This document shows positions 31,474 through 44,409 of a stretch of DNA of 64,000 bases, piece by piece. The stretch is from Segatella copri DSM 18205 (GTDB lineage Bacteria > Bacteroidota > Bacteroidia > Bacteroidales > Bacteroidaceae): contig NZ_CP102288.1 of the NCBI RefSeq assembly GCF_025151535.1, positions 1,386,001 to 1,450,000 of the forward strand. The letters run 5' to 3'. A program made the position numbers and the translations under genes. The notes below the pieces were generated by a model. That model saw only the letters and a list, made by a program, of their open reading frames with translations. It searched no databases and was not told the DNA's origin. How positions within the stretch are numbered: the stretch's first letter is position 1; the number at the start of each line of letters is the position of its first letter.

Positions 31474-31642
31474 CCTAAAATCCGCAAGCAATCTCAATGG
31501 CAATCTCAATTGCAGTAAAGAGCTTGAACACTATGCATCATGATAGTATGAGCGTGAATTTTGTCCGATTTGTGCATACCTTCCCCTTACCCCACAATGC
31601 GACTTGAGGCAATACGCAGATTAAAACCATAAGGAACGGACT

Positions 31643-32872
31643 TTATCCGAATCCAGTTTTGAAGGGTTTTGCATAAGCTCGGTTCTCTGTGTAGATATTC
31701 AGCACGTATTGCCTTGCAGTCATGATCCACTTGGCAGGTACGGAGATGAATCTGAAGACAAAAGCCTTTATGCGACTCGTTTTCTTGAGCCCAAAAGCCT
31801 TGGTGTCAAGCCTGCTCATGATGGTCTTGTAGAAATTGTGTATCAATGCAGTAAGCAGAAGAAAGACAGTATTCTCCGCCATGAATGACTTGGGGAGCCT
31901 GCTCCAACCGAATCCGTTGTTCATGTCGTCAAAGATACGTTCCTTGCCGCCACGCAGATTGTAGAATTCAACAATGTCCCTTGTCGATGACTTGTAATCG
32001 TTGGTCAGAATACAACGGTAAGTGTATTCGCCTTCCCACAGGTCAAGGTCGCCACTGTTGCGTCTTTGTCTCTGGATGACAAGACGATAGCACTTGCCTT
32101 CCCATTTCTCAACGAGAATGGAATTGAGTTCGAACTGGATGCCGTTAATCTCCTCCGTCTTCCATCCTCTCAGAGCAAAGATGTCATTGTAGAGCGAACT
32201 GCATCGGTTGGCACGGATGTAGAAATGTTTGCAATGCTTCTCTATCTCACTGACGATTTCCTTCGAGCAGGAACCGCAGTCTGCCCTGAAGCGATTTACA
32301 CGGATGTTCTGGGATTCCAGAAGAGCGAAGAATCTCTTATGGGTGTCTGCCTGATGAAAACGCACATTCGTGTTGCCATCGCTGTTCTCGATATAGACTA
32401 TCTTGTCACCGATAACATATACGCCAGGCCTGTAGCCGAGGAACTTTTTGTAGGTCGGTTTTGCATCATACTTCTCCGTTTCAAGAAACTGATGGTCAAA
32501 GTCAACATCGTATTCCTCAATTTCCTTCAACTCGCCTGTAGAAACCAAAGCGTTTATAAGCAATGTGTTGAGTTTGTCTGCAGTATTGAAATCATAGGTC
32601 TTGCCTTGGTCGGAAGTATAGGAGATGTTTTCCTGTGTCAGTTCCTTGATGGCTCTGAGGATGGTATCAGAGCTGCATGTACGAAGGGTAGGATGATACG
32701 AGAGATGGCGCATCAGTTGTGACGTTACGTCTTCCACGCATGAGCCGCCACAGAAATAAACGCTCATCAGCGAACGGACTATCTCGCTGAACTGATATCC
32801 GATGATACTGCGGCATCTCTGACCCAGTGTTGAGTCGATAACGGGTGAAAGCATGGAGTCAAATTTCTCCAT
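31643..32872 (-). CDS. IS1380-family transposase, copy 1
   Basis: A 409-residue DDE transposase of the IS1380 type found in Bacteroidota (IS942/IS613-like): N-terminal helical domain with SEIVRSLMSVYFCGGSCVED, catalytic parts EYDVDFDHQFLETEKYDAKP (first Asp), VNRFRADCGSCSKEIVSEIE (second Asp) and FYNLRGGKERIFDDMNNGFG (catalytic Glu in KERIFDDM). It differs from copies 2 and 3 by only a few residues. Intact, with an ATG and no frame disruption, hence possibly active. Confidence 0.85.
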   Translation of the reverse strand: MEKFDSMLSPVIDSTLGQRCRSIIGYQFSEIVRSLMSVYFCGGSCVEDVTSQLMRHLSYHPTLRTCSSDTILRAIKELTQENISYTSDQGKTYDFNTADKLNTLLINALVSTGELKEIEEYDVDFDHQFLETEKYDAKPTYKKFLGYRPGVYVIGDKIVYIENSDGNTNVRFHQADTHKRFFALLESQNIRVNRFRADCGSCSKEIVSEIEKHCKHFYIRANRCSSLYNDIFALRGWKTEEINGIQFELNSILVEKWEGKCYRLVIQRQRRNSGDLDLWEGEYTYRCILTNDYKSSTRDIVEFYNLRGGKERIFDDMNNGFGWSRLPKSFMAENTVFLLLTALIHNFYKTIMSRLDTKAFGLKKTSRIKAFVFRFISVPAKWIMTARQYVLNIYTENRAYAKPFKTGFG

Positions 32873-32920
32873 GATTGAAAAAATTCCTCCAAAAGGTGTG
32901 AGTTTTTCGAATTTTATTTG

Positions 32921-32928
32921 TACCTTTG
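32921..32928 (+). promoter_or_regulatory. outward promoter of IS1380 copy 1, reading into cat
   Basis: TACCTTTG, with TGTG at 32897-32900 as a near-match to the -33 TTTG and a 20-base spacer. It points away from the transposase, toward the chloramphenicol acetyltransferase gene. Confidence 0.65.
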
Positions 32929-33079
32929 CAGCGCCTTGTTACGATTTTCGCTTGTTTTCTAATTGCAACACTAAGATAAGTGAAAAATCTGACACGGCAA
33001 AATCCTAGGCAACTTATTGTTGCTCAGGAACTTATAAATAAAGTTAAATTATAGTGTTGCGGAATTAAGGTTTATCACA

Positions 33080-42157: not shown

Positions 42158-42205
42158 GATTGAAAAAATTCCTCCAAAAGGTGTGAGTTTTTCGGATTTT
42201 ATTTG

Positions 42206-42213
42206 TACCTTTG
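42206..42213 (+). promoter_or_regulatory. outward promoter of IS1380 copy 3, reading into tet(Q)
   Basis: TACCTTTG; replaces the native promoter as the nearest one upstream of tet(Q), with a leader of about 230 bases. Confidence 0.6.
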
Positions 42214-42355
42214 CAGCGCCTTGTTACGATTTTCGCTTGTTTTCTAATTGCAACACTAAGATAAGTGAAAAATCTGACACGGCAAAATCCTAGGCAACTT
42301 ATTGTTGCTCAGGAACTTATAAATAAAGTTAAATCAAAGTGTTGCGGAATTAAGG

Positions 42356-42484
42356 TAATCGTTATGCGGCAGTAATAATATACATATTAATACGAGTTAG
42401 TAATCCTGTAGTTCTCACATGCTACGAGGAGGTATTAAAAGGTGCGTTTCGACAATGCATCTATTGTAGTATATAATTGCTTAA
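42356..42484 (+). repeat. tet(Q) leader, copy 2 (129-bp direct repeat)
   Basis: Same 129 bp as at 40629-40757, directly after the IS and running into tet(Q). GAGGAGG precedes the GTG at 42442. Leaders of tet(Q) in CTnDOT-type elements are known for translational attenuation, so regulation may be kept here though the promoter is new. Confidence 0.85.
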
Positions 42485-44409
42485 TCCAAATGAATATTAT
42501 AAATTTAGGAATTCTTGCTCACATTGATGCAGGAAAAACTTCCGTAACCGAGAATCTGCTGTTTGCCAGTGGAGCAACGGAAAAGTGCGGCCGTGTGGAT
42601 AATGGTGACACCATAACAGACTCTATGGATATAGAGAAACGTAGAGGAATTACTGTTCGGGCTTCTACGACATCTATTATCTGGAATGGAGTGAAATGCA
42701 ATATCATTGACACTCCGGGACACATGGATTTTATTGCGGAAGTGGAGCGGACATTCAAAATGCTTGATGGAGCAGTCCTCATCTTATCCGCAAAGGAAGG
42801 CATACAAGCGCAGACAAAGTTGCTGTTCAGTACTTTACAAAAGCTGCAAATCCCGACAATTATATTTATCAATAAAATTGACCGTGACGGTGTGAATTTG
42901 GAGCGTTTGTATATGGATATAAAAACAAATCTGTCGCAAGATGTCCTGTTTATGCAAACTGTTGTCGATGGATCGGTTTATCCGGTTTGCTCCCAAACAT
43001 ATATAAAGGAAGAATACAAAGAATTTGTATGCAACCATGACGACGATATATTAGAACGATATTTGGCGGATAGCGAAATTTCACCGGCTGATTATTGGAA
43101 TACGATAATCGCTCTTGTGGCAAAAGCCAAAGTCTATCCGGTGCTACATGGATCAGCAATGTTCAATATCGGTATCAATGAGTTGTTGGACGCCATTTCT
43201 TCTTTTATACTTCCTCCGGCATCAGTCTCAAACAGACTTTCAGCTTATCTCTATAAGATAGAGCATGACCCCAAAGGGCATAAAAGAAGTTTTCTTAAAA
43301 TAATTGACGGAAGTCTGAGACTTCGAGACGTTGTAAGAATCAACGATTCGGAAAAATTCATCAAGATTAAAAATCTAAAGACTATTTATCAGGGCAGAGA
43401 GATAAATGTTGATGAAGTGGGTGCCAATGATATCGCGATTGTAGAGGATATGGAAGATTTTCGAATCGGAGATTATTTAGGTGTTAAGCCTTGTTTGATT
43501 CAAGGATTATCCCATCAGCATCCCGCCCTCAAATCCTCCGTCCGGCCAGACAAGCCCGAAGAGAGAAGCAAGGTTATATCCGCTCTGAATACATTGTGGA
43601 TTGAAGACCCGTCTTTGTCCTTTTCCATAAACTCTTATAGTGATGAATTGGAAATCTCGTTATATGGTTTGACCCAAAAGGAAATCATACAGACATTGCT
43701 TGAAGAGCGATTTTCCGTAAAGGTCCATTTTGATGAGATCAAGACTATCTACAAAGAACGACCTATAAAAAAGGTCAATAAGATTATTCAGATCGAAGTA
43801 CCACCCAACCCTTACTGGGCCACAATAGGGCTGACGCTTGAACCCTTGCCGTTAGGGACAGGGTTGCAAATCGAAAGTGACATCTCCTATGGTTATCTGA
43901 ACCATTCTTTTCAAAATGCCGTTTTTGAAGGGATTCGTATGTCTTGCCAATCTGGTTTACATGGATGGGAAGTGACTGATCTGAAAGTAACTTTTACTCA
44001 AGCCGAGTATTATAGCCCGGTAAGTACACCTGCTGATTTCAGACAGCTGACCCCTTATGTCTTCAGGCTGGCCTTGCAACAGTCAGGTGTGGACATTCTC
44101 GAACCGATGCTCTATTTTGAGTTGCAGATACCCCAAGCGGCAAGTTCCAAAGCTATTACAGATTTGCAAAAAATGATGTCTGAGATTGAAGACATCAGTT
44201 GCAATAATGAGTGGTGTCATATTAAAGGGAAAGTTCCATTAAATACAAGTAAAGACTACGCCTCAGAAGTAAGTTCATACACTAAGGGCTTAGGCGTTTT
44301 TATGGTCAAGCCATGCGGGTATCAAATAACAAAAGGCGATTATTCTGATAATATCCGCATGAACGAAAAAGATAAACTTTTATTCATGTTCCAAAAATCA
44401 ATGTCATGA
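42442..44409 (+). CDS. tetQ: tetracycline resistance ribosomal protection protein Tet(Q)
   Basis: A translation GTPase that removes tetracycline from the ribosome. G-domain motifs: AHIDAGKT, DTPGHMDF, FINKID; C-terminal domains IV-V follow. 655 residues from GTG 42442, which has a strong GAGGAGG; the alternative ATG at 42490 gives MNIINLGILAHIDAGKT, which aligns with other ribosomal protection proteins. The protein ends MFQKSMS, whereas the usual Tet(Q) end has two more residues; here the TGA stop is made by the first bases of the next IS. No rteA or rteB follows. Essentially whole, likely functional. Confidence 0.95.
   Translation: MRFDNASIVVYNCLIQMNIINLGILAHIDAGKTSVTENLLFASGATEKCGRVDNGDTITDSMDIEKRRGITVRASTTSIIWNGVKCNIIDTPGHMDFIAEVERTFKMLDGAVLILSAKEGIQAQTKLLFSTLQKLQIPTIIFINKIDRDGVNLERLYMDIKTNLSQDVLFMQTVVDGSVYPVCSQTYIKEEYKEFVCNHDDDILERYLADSEISPADYWNTIIALVAKAKVYPVLHGSAMFNIGINELLDAISSFILPPASVSNRLSAYLYKIEHDPKGHKRSFLKIIDGSLRLRDVVRINDSEKFIKIKNLKTIYQGREINVDEVGANDIAIVEDMEDFRIGDYLGVKPCLIQGLSHQHPALKSSVRPDKPEERSKVISALNTLWIEDPSLSFSINSYSDELEISLYGLTQKEIIQTLLEERFSVKVHFDEIKTIYKERPIKKVNKIIQIEVPPNPYWATIGLTLEPLPLGTGLQIESDISYGYLNHSFQNAVFEGIRMSCQSGLHGWEVTDLKVTFTQAEYYSPVSTPADFRQLTPYVFRLALQQSGVDILEPMLYFELQIPQAASSKAITDLQKMMSEIEDISCNNEWCHIKGKVPLNTSKDYASEVSSYTKGLGVFMVKPCGYQITKGDYSDNIRMNEKDKLLFMFQKSMS

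What the first reader, a model, noticed from the sequence alone, without database searches (positions are those of the whole stretch)
31474..42490. Three IS1380 copies each place an outward promoter in front of cargo, two of the three being resistance genes
All three copies lie in the same orientation and carry the outward box TACCTTTG about 50 bases before the transposase start codon edge. The first gene downstream is cat (10 bases after the IS end), the 35815-37582 operon, and tet(Q). Copies of IS942/IS613-type IS1380 elements are known to activate resistance genes in Bacteroides, so a role as portable promoters is likely; the three-fold use in one island is the striking part. Direct orientation also makes each block (2.7 and 6.6 kb) excisable by recombination.
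Basis: partly seen in the sequence, partly recalled or inferred. Interest (0 to 1): 0.7.

Follow-up and report, generated by a model that had tools for sequence, protein, structure and literature searches.

The report
IS612-like portable promoters in resistance island
Three near-identical copies of a mobile DNA element sit directly in front of cargo genes, two of them antibiotic resistance genes, and probably supply their promoters; this is a known trick of gut Bacteroidota, but here the junctions also show that the elements were the seams along which the island was spliced together.

Summary
Confirmed: three IS1380-family copies (IS612-like, 1597-1598 bp, same orientation) at 31474-33070, 34195-35792 and 40758-42355. 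Each has one outward TACCTTTG box and stands before cat (9 bp), a four-gene operon (22 bp) or tet(Q). The portable-promoter reading fits published work on this IS family and sibling copies elsewhere facing mef(A), erm(F) and nimE; no transcript could be tested here. (1) IS3 lies between two copies (129 bp, 3 differences) of the tet(Q) leader: copy A keeps the native promoter, copy B stands before tet(Q) behind the IS promoter. (2) None of the three copies has a target duplication; an identical fourth copy elsewhere in the genome does. (3) IS1 is a chimera of two IS types with one crossover at 31655-31664. IS-IS recombination therefore most likely built the island. The exact IS-tet(Q) junction was found in 1 of 399 family genomes, this one. 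tet(Q) relatives have their own promoter at that point, so this is promoter replacement, not first activation. Read-through from the relic promoter remains an open rival. Verdict: real, a well-placed new member of a known kind; moderate interest.

The parts
31474..33070 (-). IS1, IS612-like IS1380 element (transposase 31643-32872); chimeric left end; no target duplication
31655..31664 (.). crossover interval in IS1: 99 consecutive diagnostic sites on its left match the L191-type IS; the next 88 on its right match IS2
32921..32928 (+). outward -7 box TACCTTTG of IS1, TGTG 20 nt upstream
33080..33715 (+). cat (type A chloramphenicol acetyltransferase), 9 bp after IS1
34195..35792 (-). IS2, IS612-like (transposase 34365-35594); no target duplication
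35643..35650 (+). outward -7 box of IS2
35815..37582 (+). four-gene operon (77 aa; flavin reductase-like 188 aa; metallo-hydrolase-like 250 aa; 59 aa) starting 22 bp after IS2; on a B. finegoldii plasmid the first gene follows an upstream gene cluster
40621..40628 (+). relic native tet(Q) -7 box TAATTTTG
40629..40757 (+). tet(Q) leader copy A, cut off from tet(Q) by IS3
40758..42355 (-). IS3, IS612-like (transposase 40928-42157); no target duplication
42206..42213 (+). outward -7 box of IS3
42356..42484 (+). tet(Q) leader copy B in front of tet(Q); holds a 16-codon ORF 42419-42469 (its role as leader peptide is recalled)
42490..44409 (+). tet(Q)

Best explanation
The three copies are IS612-like IS1380 elements acting both as portable promoters and as recombination seams. 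Inferred: each right end fires outward from TGTG-N20-TACCTTTG and gives a transcript with about 130 nt of IS leader running into cat, the 35815 operon and tet(Q). Inferred from comparison with sites that lack the IS: single IS copies once inserted just in front of cat (target TTTAT), in the operon (target GTTAA) and at the tet(Q) mRNA start (target TAATC). Shown by sequence: no copy has matching flanks, IS1 is half another IS, and the tet(Q) leader exists twice around IS3. So adjacent modules were most likely joined by homologous recombination between IS copies. At tet(Q), the IS promoter replaced the native one exactly at the start of the leader, so the leader that attenuates translation (function known from the literature) stays linked to the gene.
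For: Sites without the IS: a 92% identical cat (nucleotides) in Phocaeicola barnesiae (L048; AATTTTTATCACAATG) matches from the first base after the IS. All 29 close tet(Q) relatives read have TAATTTTG straight before the leader (28, L042). Ten more diverged loci have TAnnTTTG boxes in different upstream sequence at the same place. The operon's site is uninterrupted in L142, L143 and L251. Matching 5-bp flanks at 0 of 3 window copies, but TTTAT at the fourth copy L176, which is identical to IS3. IS1 chimera: 99 then 88 consecutive diagnostic sites; its full left end occurs once in the genome. Leader copy A equals the commonest allele (19 of 29), copy B lies 1 substitution from 3 others. Promoter role. 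Outside the window, of 18 intergenic non-duplicate copies 11 have only the right end facing a gene start within 150 bp, 2 only the left, 2 both, 3 neither; sign test p=0.022.
Against: No transcript data. The exact TAnnTTTG box is intact in only 25 of 33 distinct transposase N-terminal variants (5 of 38 with stops or unrelated were dropped), and two of three copies facing mef(A) have it altered, so it may not be the only outward promoter. The box overlaps codons that are conserved anyway. The relic tet(Q) promoter survives about 1.9 kb before tet(Q), and no + strand terminator-like site was found in 40500-42500. Leader copy B alone folds no better than shuffles (z -0.80), unlike copy A (z -2.88). 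The orientation test is small and its gene calls are crude: it used 41 rows (7 duplicates) with both ends recognised, from 75 fetched stretches; 16 further non-duplicate copies were called intragenic, 10 of them with target duplications, so landing before genes is no rule. One of the 18 rows is a mis-oriented hit (L201 +, a 'neither') and one (L184) has a doubtful left end.
Confidence: 0.72

Rival explanations
1. tet(Q) is still transcribed from its relic native promoter at 40621, reading through leader A and the whole of IS3 (antisense to the transposase), and cat and the operon are read from outside as well; the IS promoter adds little.
For: Relic TTTTG-N19-TAATTTTG is intact and the same as in most relatives. 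No + strand terminator-like site between it and tet(Q).
Against: It needs about 1.9 kb of read-through, 1.6 kb of it across the IS. Sibling copies face resistance genes with different left flanks, so no single outside promoter serves them.
Confidence: 0.2
2. The modules moved by one-ended transposition as described for the IS1380 members ISEcp1 and ISPme1: IS plus downstream DNA, using a false right repeat.
For: Same IS family; the cargo lies off the right end; the process is described in PMC9330008 (passages).
Against: No 5-mer equal to the left flank and preceded by a repeat-like sequence was found in the cargo: the best scored 6 of 14 repeat positions. It explains neither the chimeric IS1 nor the doubled leader.
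Confidence: 0.07
3. Assembly error: near-identical IS copies joined wrongly, possibly from a mixed culture.
For: Four near-identical copies in one contig; raw reads are not available.
Against: The full IS1 left end occurs nowhere else in the genome and there is no third leader, so a misjoin would need a second strain. The genome is one contig, 99.94% complete with 0.38% contamination.
Confidence: 0.08
4. The IS copies are passive hitchhikers whose position before genes is chance or tolerance of intergenic insertions.
For: Intragenic and non-promoting insertions of relatives are common.
Against: Three mef(A) insertions at three distances (2, 5 and 12 bp), erm(F) at 0 and 37 bp, nimE, cat and tet(Q), all in the promoting orientation.
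Confidence: 0.08

Closest known systems
IS612 (IS1380 family), known upstream of cfiA in Bacteroides fragilis
   Same: The three window copies match an annotated IS612 on CP103159.1 with mean identity 98.0%; outward-type box; IS612 is listed as facing a resistance gene (review table)
   Different: The last 250 bp or so differ (my slice of the plasmid copy included a few flanking bases) and the transposase's ATG is lost; cargo is cat, an operon and tet(Q); IS1 is chimeric
IS614 in Bacteroides caccae (PMC7260799)
   Same: IS1380 family (PMC8764542 table), 1596 bp, outward promoter antisense to the transposase, supported by RNA-seq in a patient
   Different: Separate insertions before chromosomal genes in the passages seen, not a linked array
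ISEcp1 / ISPme1 transposable modules
   Same: IS1380 family, outward promoter, cargo off the IS end
   Different: No false right repeat with target duplication found here; seams look like IS-IS crossovers
IS26 arrays of Enterobacteria (recalled)
   Same: Directly repeated IS copies shared between adjacent resistance modules
   Different: IS26 joins by transposase-made cointegrates (recalled); here the chimeric IS points to homologous recombination
tet(Q) of CTnDOT-type elements with translational attenuation (PMC5418344 table passage; details recalled)
   Same: Leader and gene intact
   Different: Native promoter separated and replaced by an IS end; leader doubled

Membership tests
IS1380 family | transposase model NF033539 above cut-off | tested here: met
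   312.7 bits, cut-off 180 (IS1 copy; with IS3 as query the IS1 and IS2 proteins are 99% and 98% identical)
IS1380 family | terminal inverted repeats at both ends | tested here: met
   CCTAAAATCCGCAA and CCTTAATTCCGCAA at 3 of 3 copies
IS1380 family | short (4-5 bp) target duplication (recalled) | tested here: not met
   0 of 3 window copies; met (TTTAT) at the identical fourth copy L176. This speaks of later recombination, not of another family
IS612 | over 95% nucleotide identity (ISfinder convention, recalled) | tested here: inconclusive
   98.0% mean over three matched pieces, but a diverged right end and, in IS1, a foreign left end
portable promoter IS | outward promoter sequence facing a gene | tested here: met
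   TGTG-N20-TACCTTTG in 3 of 3 copies
portable promoter IS | transcripts of the neighbour start in the IS | not testable with these tools
   needs RNA
compound transposon | target duplication around the outer ends of the array | tested here: not met
   0 of 9 left/right flank pairs match: left ATTAT, TTTGT, CTTAA; right TTTAT, GTTAA, TAATC (the pair around IS1, ATTAT/TTTAT, agrees in 4 of 5)
ISEcp1-like module | false right repeat plus matching 5-mer at cargo end | tested here: not met
   best 6 of 14 positions
tet(Q) | NF012154 above cut-off | tested here: met
   1520.7 bits, cut-off 1425

The most novel reading that the evidence does not exclude
IS612-type elements could be a Bacteroidota counterpart of the enterobacterial IS26 array. 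One IS serves two modules at once, as promoter for the gene on its right and as the homology that lets new modules snap in. Because insertions can fall at mRNA starts, the drug-responsive leader of tet(Q) is kept while its promoter is exchanged; natural tet(Q) alleles already show several different promoters joined at that same point.
Probability: 0.35. Interest if true: 0.6.

Novelty: new member of a known kind. Interest (0 to 1): 0.42.

Why it matters
It links two roles of one IS in gut Bacteroidota, switching genes on and splicing resistance modules, with sequence scars that can be read and tested. For tet(Q) it predicts a changed promoter under unchanged drug-responsive control. Resistance prediction from presence of a gene alone would miss such promoter exchanges.

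Tried and rejected
One-ended (ISEcp1-like) module movement: no supporting repeat. A 129-bp target duplication made by one insertion: rejected, since sister copies make 5-bp duplications and the two leaders differ at 3 positions and match different allele groups. IS-tet(Q) junction on plasmids: 13 of 72,556 records matched part of the 200-bp query, 0 covered 80% of it. Conserved hairpin CCTGAGCAAC-loop-GTTGCTCAGG between box and right end, weaker in one group (L147, L149, L176: -10.6 against -16 to -17 kcal/mol in most listed copies): no clear link to resistance cargo, left as an observation. Box conservation as proof of a promoter: the third base of GTA is fixed (33 of 33) and of GCA mostly so (29 of 33), but others such as CCT (32 of 33) are equally fixed, so this is only suggestive. 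Target duplications at resistance-facing against other copies: 1 of 7 against 19 of 27, Fisher p=0.012; without the window's copies 1 of 5 against 19 of 26, p=0.042. Those tables were typed by hand, made after looking; L185's 4-bp match was counted as none, L194 (left end unclear) and L217 (same erm(F)-type flank as L215, no duplication) were left out, other duplicates were dropped, and L212's second, duplicate-flagged row was counted. Not every downstream gene was checked for resistance function. Key papers on IS612, IS942 and the tet(Q) leader are not held, so their content is recalled.
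Full report
Anatomy. The window lies in a 3,325,514-base, one-contig genome at 1386001-1450000. Three IS1380-family copies share one orientation: IS1 31474-33070, IS2 34195-35792, IS3 40758-42355. The closest named element among plasmids is IS612: on CP103159.1 the three pieces average 98.0% identity. A fourth copy, identical to IS3, has its right end at about 2009214 and keeps a 5-bp duplication TTTAT. Five further full-length relatives about 74% identical in protein, and fragments, are scattered in the genome.

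Outward promoter. Each copy holds a single + strand TAnnTTTG, TACCTTTG, starting 150 bases before the right end, with TGTG 20 bases upstream. This fits the B. fragilis promoter description of -33 TG/TTG/TGTG and -7 TAnnTTTG as quoted in PMC6927303 (passages). Caveats: the octamer is common in this window, a chance box in the right end is not rare (13.6% of shuffles), and the box coincides with transposase codons of relatives. In the window's copies the family's usual ATG has become GCT, so the listed transposase ORF starts about 20 codons later. Of 38 distinct N-terminal variants, 5 with stops or unrelated were dropped; 25 of the remaining 33 keep an exact TAnnTTTG. Two of three copies that face mef(A) do not.

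What the right ends face. Here: cat at 9 bp, the operon at 22 bp, tet(Q) at 134 bp with its leader between. In other genomes: mef(A) at 5, 2 and 12 bp (L185, L186, L191), erm(F) at 37 and 0 bp (L194, L215; names by NCBIfam above cut-off), and nimE about 16 bp after IS612B on pBFQ11c. In G082 a more distant relative (66% nucleotide identity) lies about 60 bp upstream of the tet(Q) leader, in the same orientation, with the native promoter kept. For an orientation test I fetched 75 stretches chosen from the capped list and; 41 rows with both ends recognised came out, 7 of them duplicates, 16 non-duplicates intragenic and 18 intergenic. Of the 18, 11 have only the right end facing a gene start within 150 bp, 2 only the left, 2 both and 3 neither (p=0.022). 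One 'neither' is a mis-oriented hit.

tet(Q). One search listed 48 strong tet(Q)-type matches (E below 1e-20) in 399 genomes, two of them in this genome (tet(Q) itself and leader copy A). I read the upstream region of 29 close relatives: TAATTTTG stands straight before the leader in 29 of 29 (28, L042). Of 13 more fetched, three agree (L262, L263, L266) and ten more diverged ones carry TAnnTTTG boxes in different upstream sequence. Four were left out: one at a contig edge (G087) and three only 71% identical (G055, G037, G009). In this genome the native promoter and leader copy A (40621-40757) are cut off by IS3, and leader copy B (42356-42484) follows the IS end. The copies differ at 3 of 129 positions. 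A is identical to 19 of 29 relatives; B is 1 substitution from 3 of them (L262, L263 and L266 were too short to count). The genome holds no third leader. The predicted pairing of the leader core appears in copy A and in the IS-fused transcript; copy B alone is not more stable than shuffles. The exact-pattern junction of IS end and leader was found in 1 of 399 genomes, this one, and no plasmid record covered 80% of the junction query. The sites imply two separate insertions, at TAATC and at CTTAA, in two tet(Q) alleles, later joined by crossover inside the IS (inference).

cat and the operon. A 92% identical cat without the IS (Phocaeicola barnesiae, L048) matches from the first base after IS1; the native AATTTTTATCACAATG gives the target TTTAT. 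In 7 of 399 family genomes a cat relative was found at E 1e-40 or better, own included; own is the only one whose match includes the IS end. On a B. finegoldii plasmid the operon's first gene follows an upstream gene cluster, and there and in L142 and L143 GTTAATGA is uninterrupted, so IS2 took the place of that upstream DNA.

Recombination seams. 0 of 3 copies and 0 of 9 left/right flank pairs show a matching 5-mer; the pair around IS1 agrees in 4 of 5. IS1 is a chimera: from 31488 to 31655, 99 consecutive diagnostic sites match the IS of L191 (a genome where it faces mef(A)); from 31664, 88 consecutive sites match IS2; of the later diagnostic sites 72 match IS2, 4 match L191 and 1 neither. 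That full left end occurs nowhere else in this genome.

Literature. Searches. Seen as passages only: PMC9330008 (IS612 to cfiA listed; ISEcp1 modules), PMC7260799 (IS614 outward promoter with RNA-seq support), PMC6927303 (the tet(Q) entries shown list no upstream IS), PMC8764542 (IS612B and IS614 before cfiA), PMC8849064 (IS612 before nimB cited), PMC5418344 (tetQ attenuation). In these searches and passages I saw no report of an IS1380 element exchanging the tet(Q) promoter; papers outside that library were not searched.

Verdict. The function is a known kind, likely but unproven here. The new parts are the promoter exchange at the tet(Q) mRNA start with a relic left behind, and scars of IS-IS recombination.

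Noticed in passing
38551-40110: Class A beta-lactamase-like domain fused to an alpha/beta hydrolase; the best relatives are mostly 577-591 aa. The window copy ends early, and from 40045 the DNA matches tet(Q)-upstream sequence of G299 (L020), so the esterase end looks cut off by a junction. Below the NCBIfam class A cut-offs.
   Followed up: partly
30806-31447: Minus-strand ORF next to IS1 on the left with a weak, below cut-off AbiH match to the C-terminal part of the profile; perhaps a phage-defence gene cut off by IS1.
   Followed up: no
44417-45748: Another transposase ORF (DUF772 match) on the minus strand ends 7 bp beyond the tet(Q) stop, convergent with it.
   Followed up: no
33004-33028 and equivalents in IS2, IS3: A hairpin (10-bp stem in many relatives) lies between the outward box and the right repeat in the copies listed; the fourth genome copy, with the same 25-mer as IS1 and IS3, has a weaker one.
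   Followed up: partly
L254-L261, L264, L265: Diverged tet(Q) alleles carry different upstream promoter sequence joined at the same point before a conserved leader, as if leader plus gene were a promoterless cassette.
   Followed up: partly
33779-34177: 132-aa minus-strand ORF starting 17 bp left of IS2, with no Pfam or NCBIfam match; its own promoter region may have been replaced by the IS left end.
   Followed up: no
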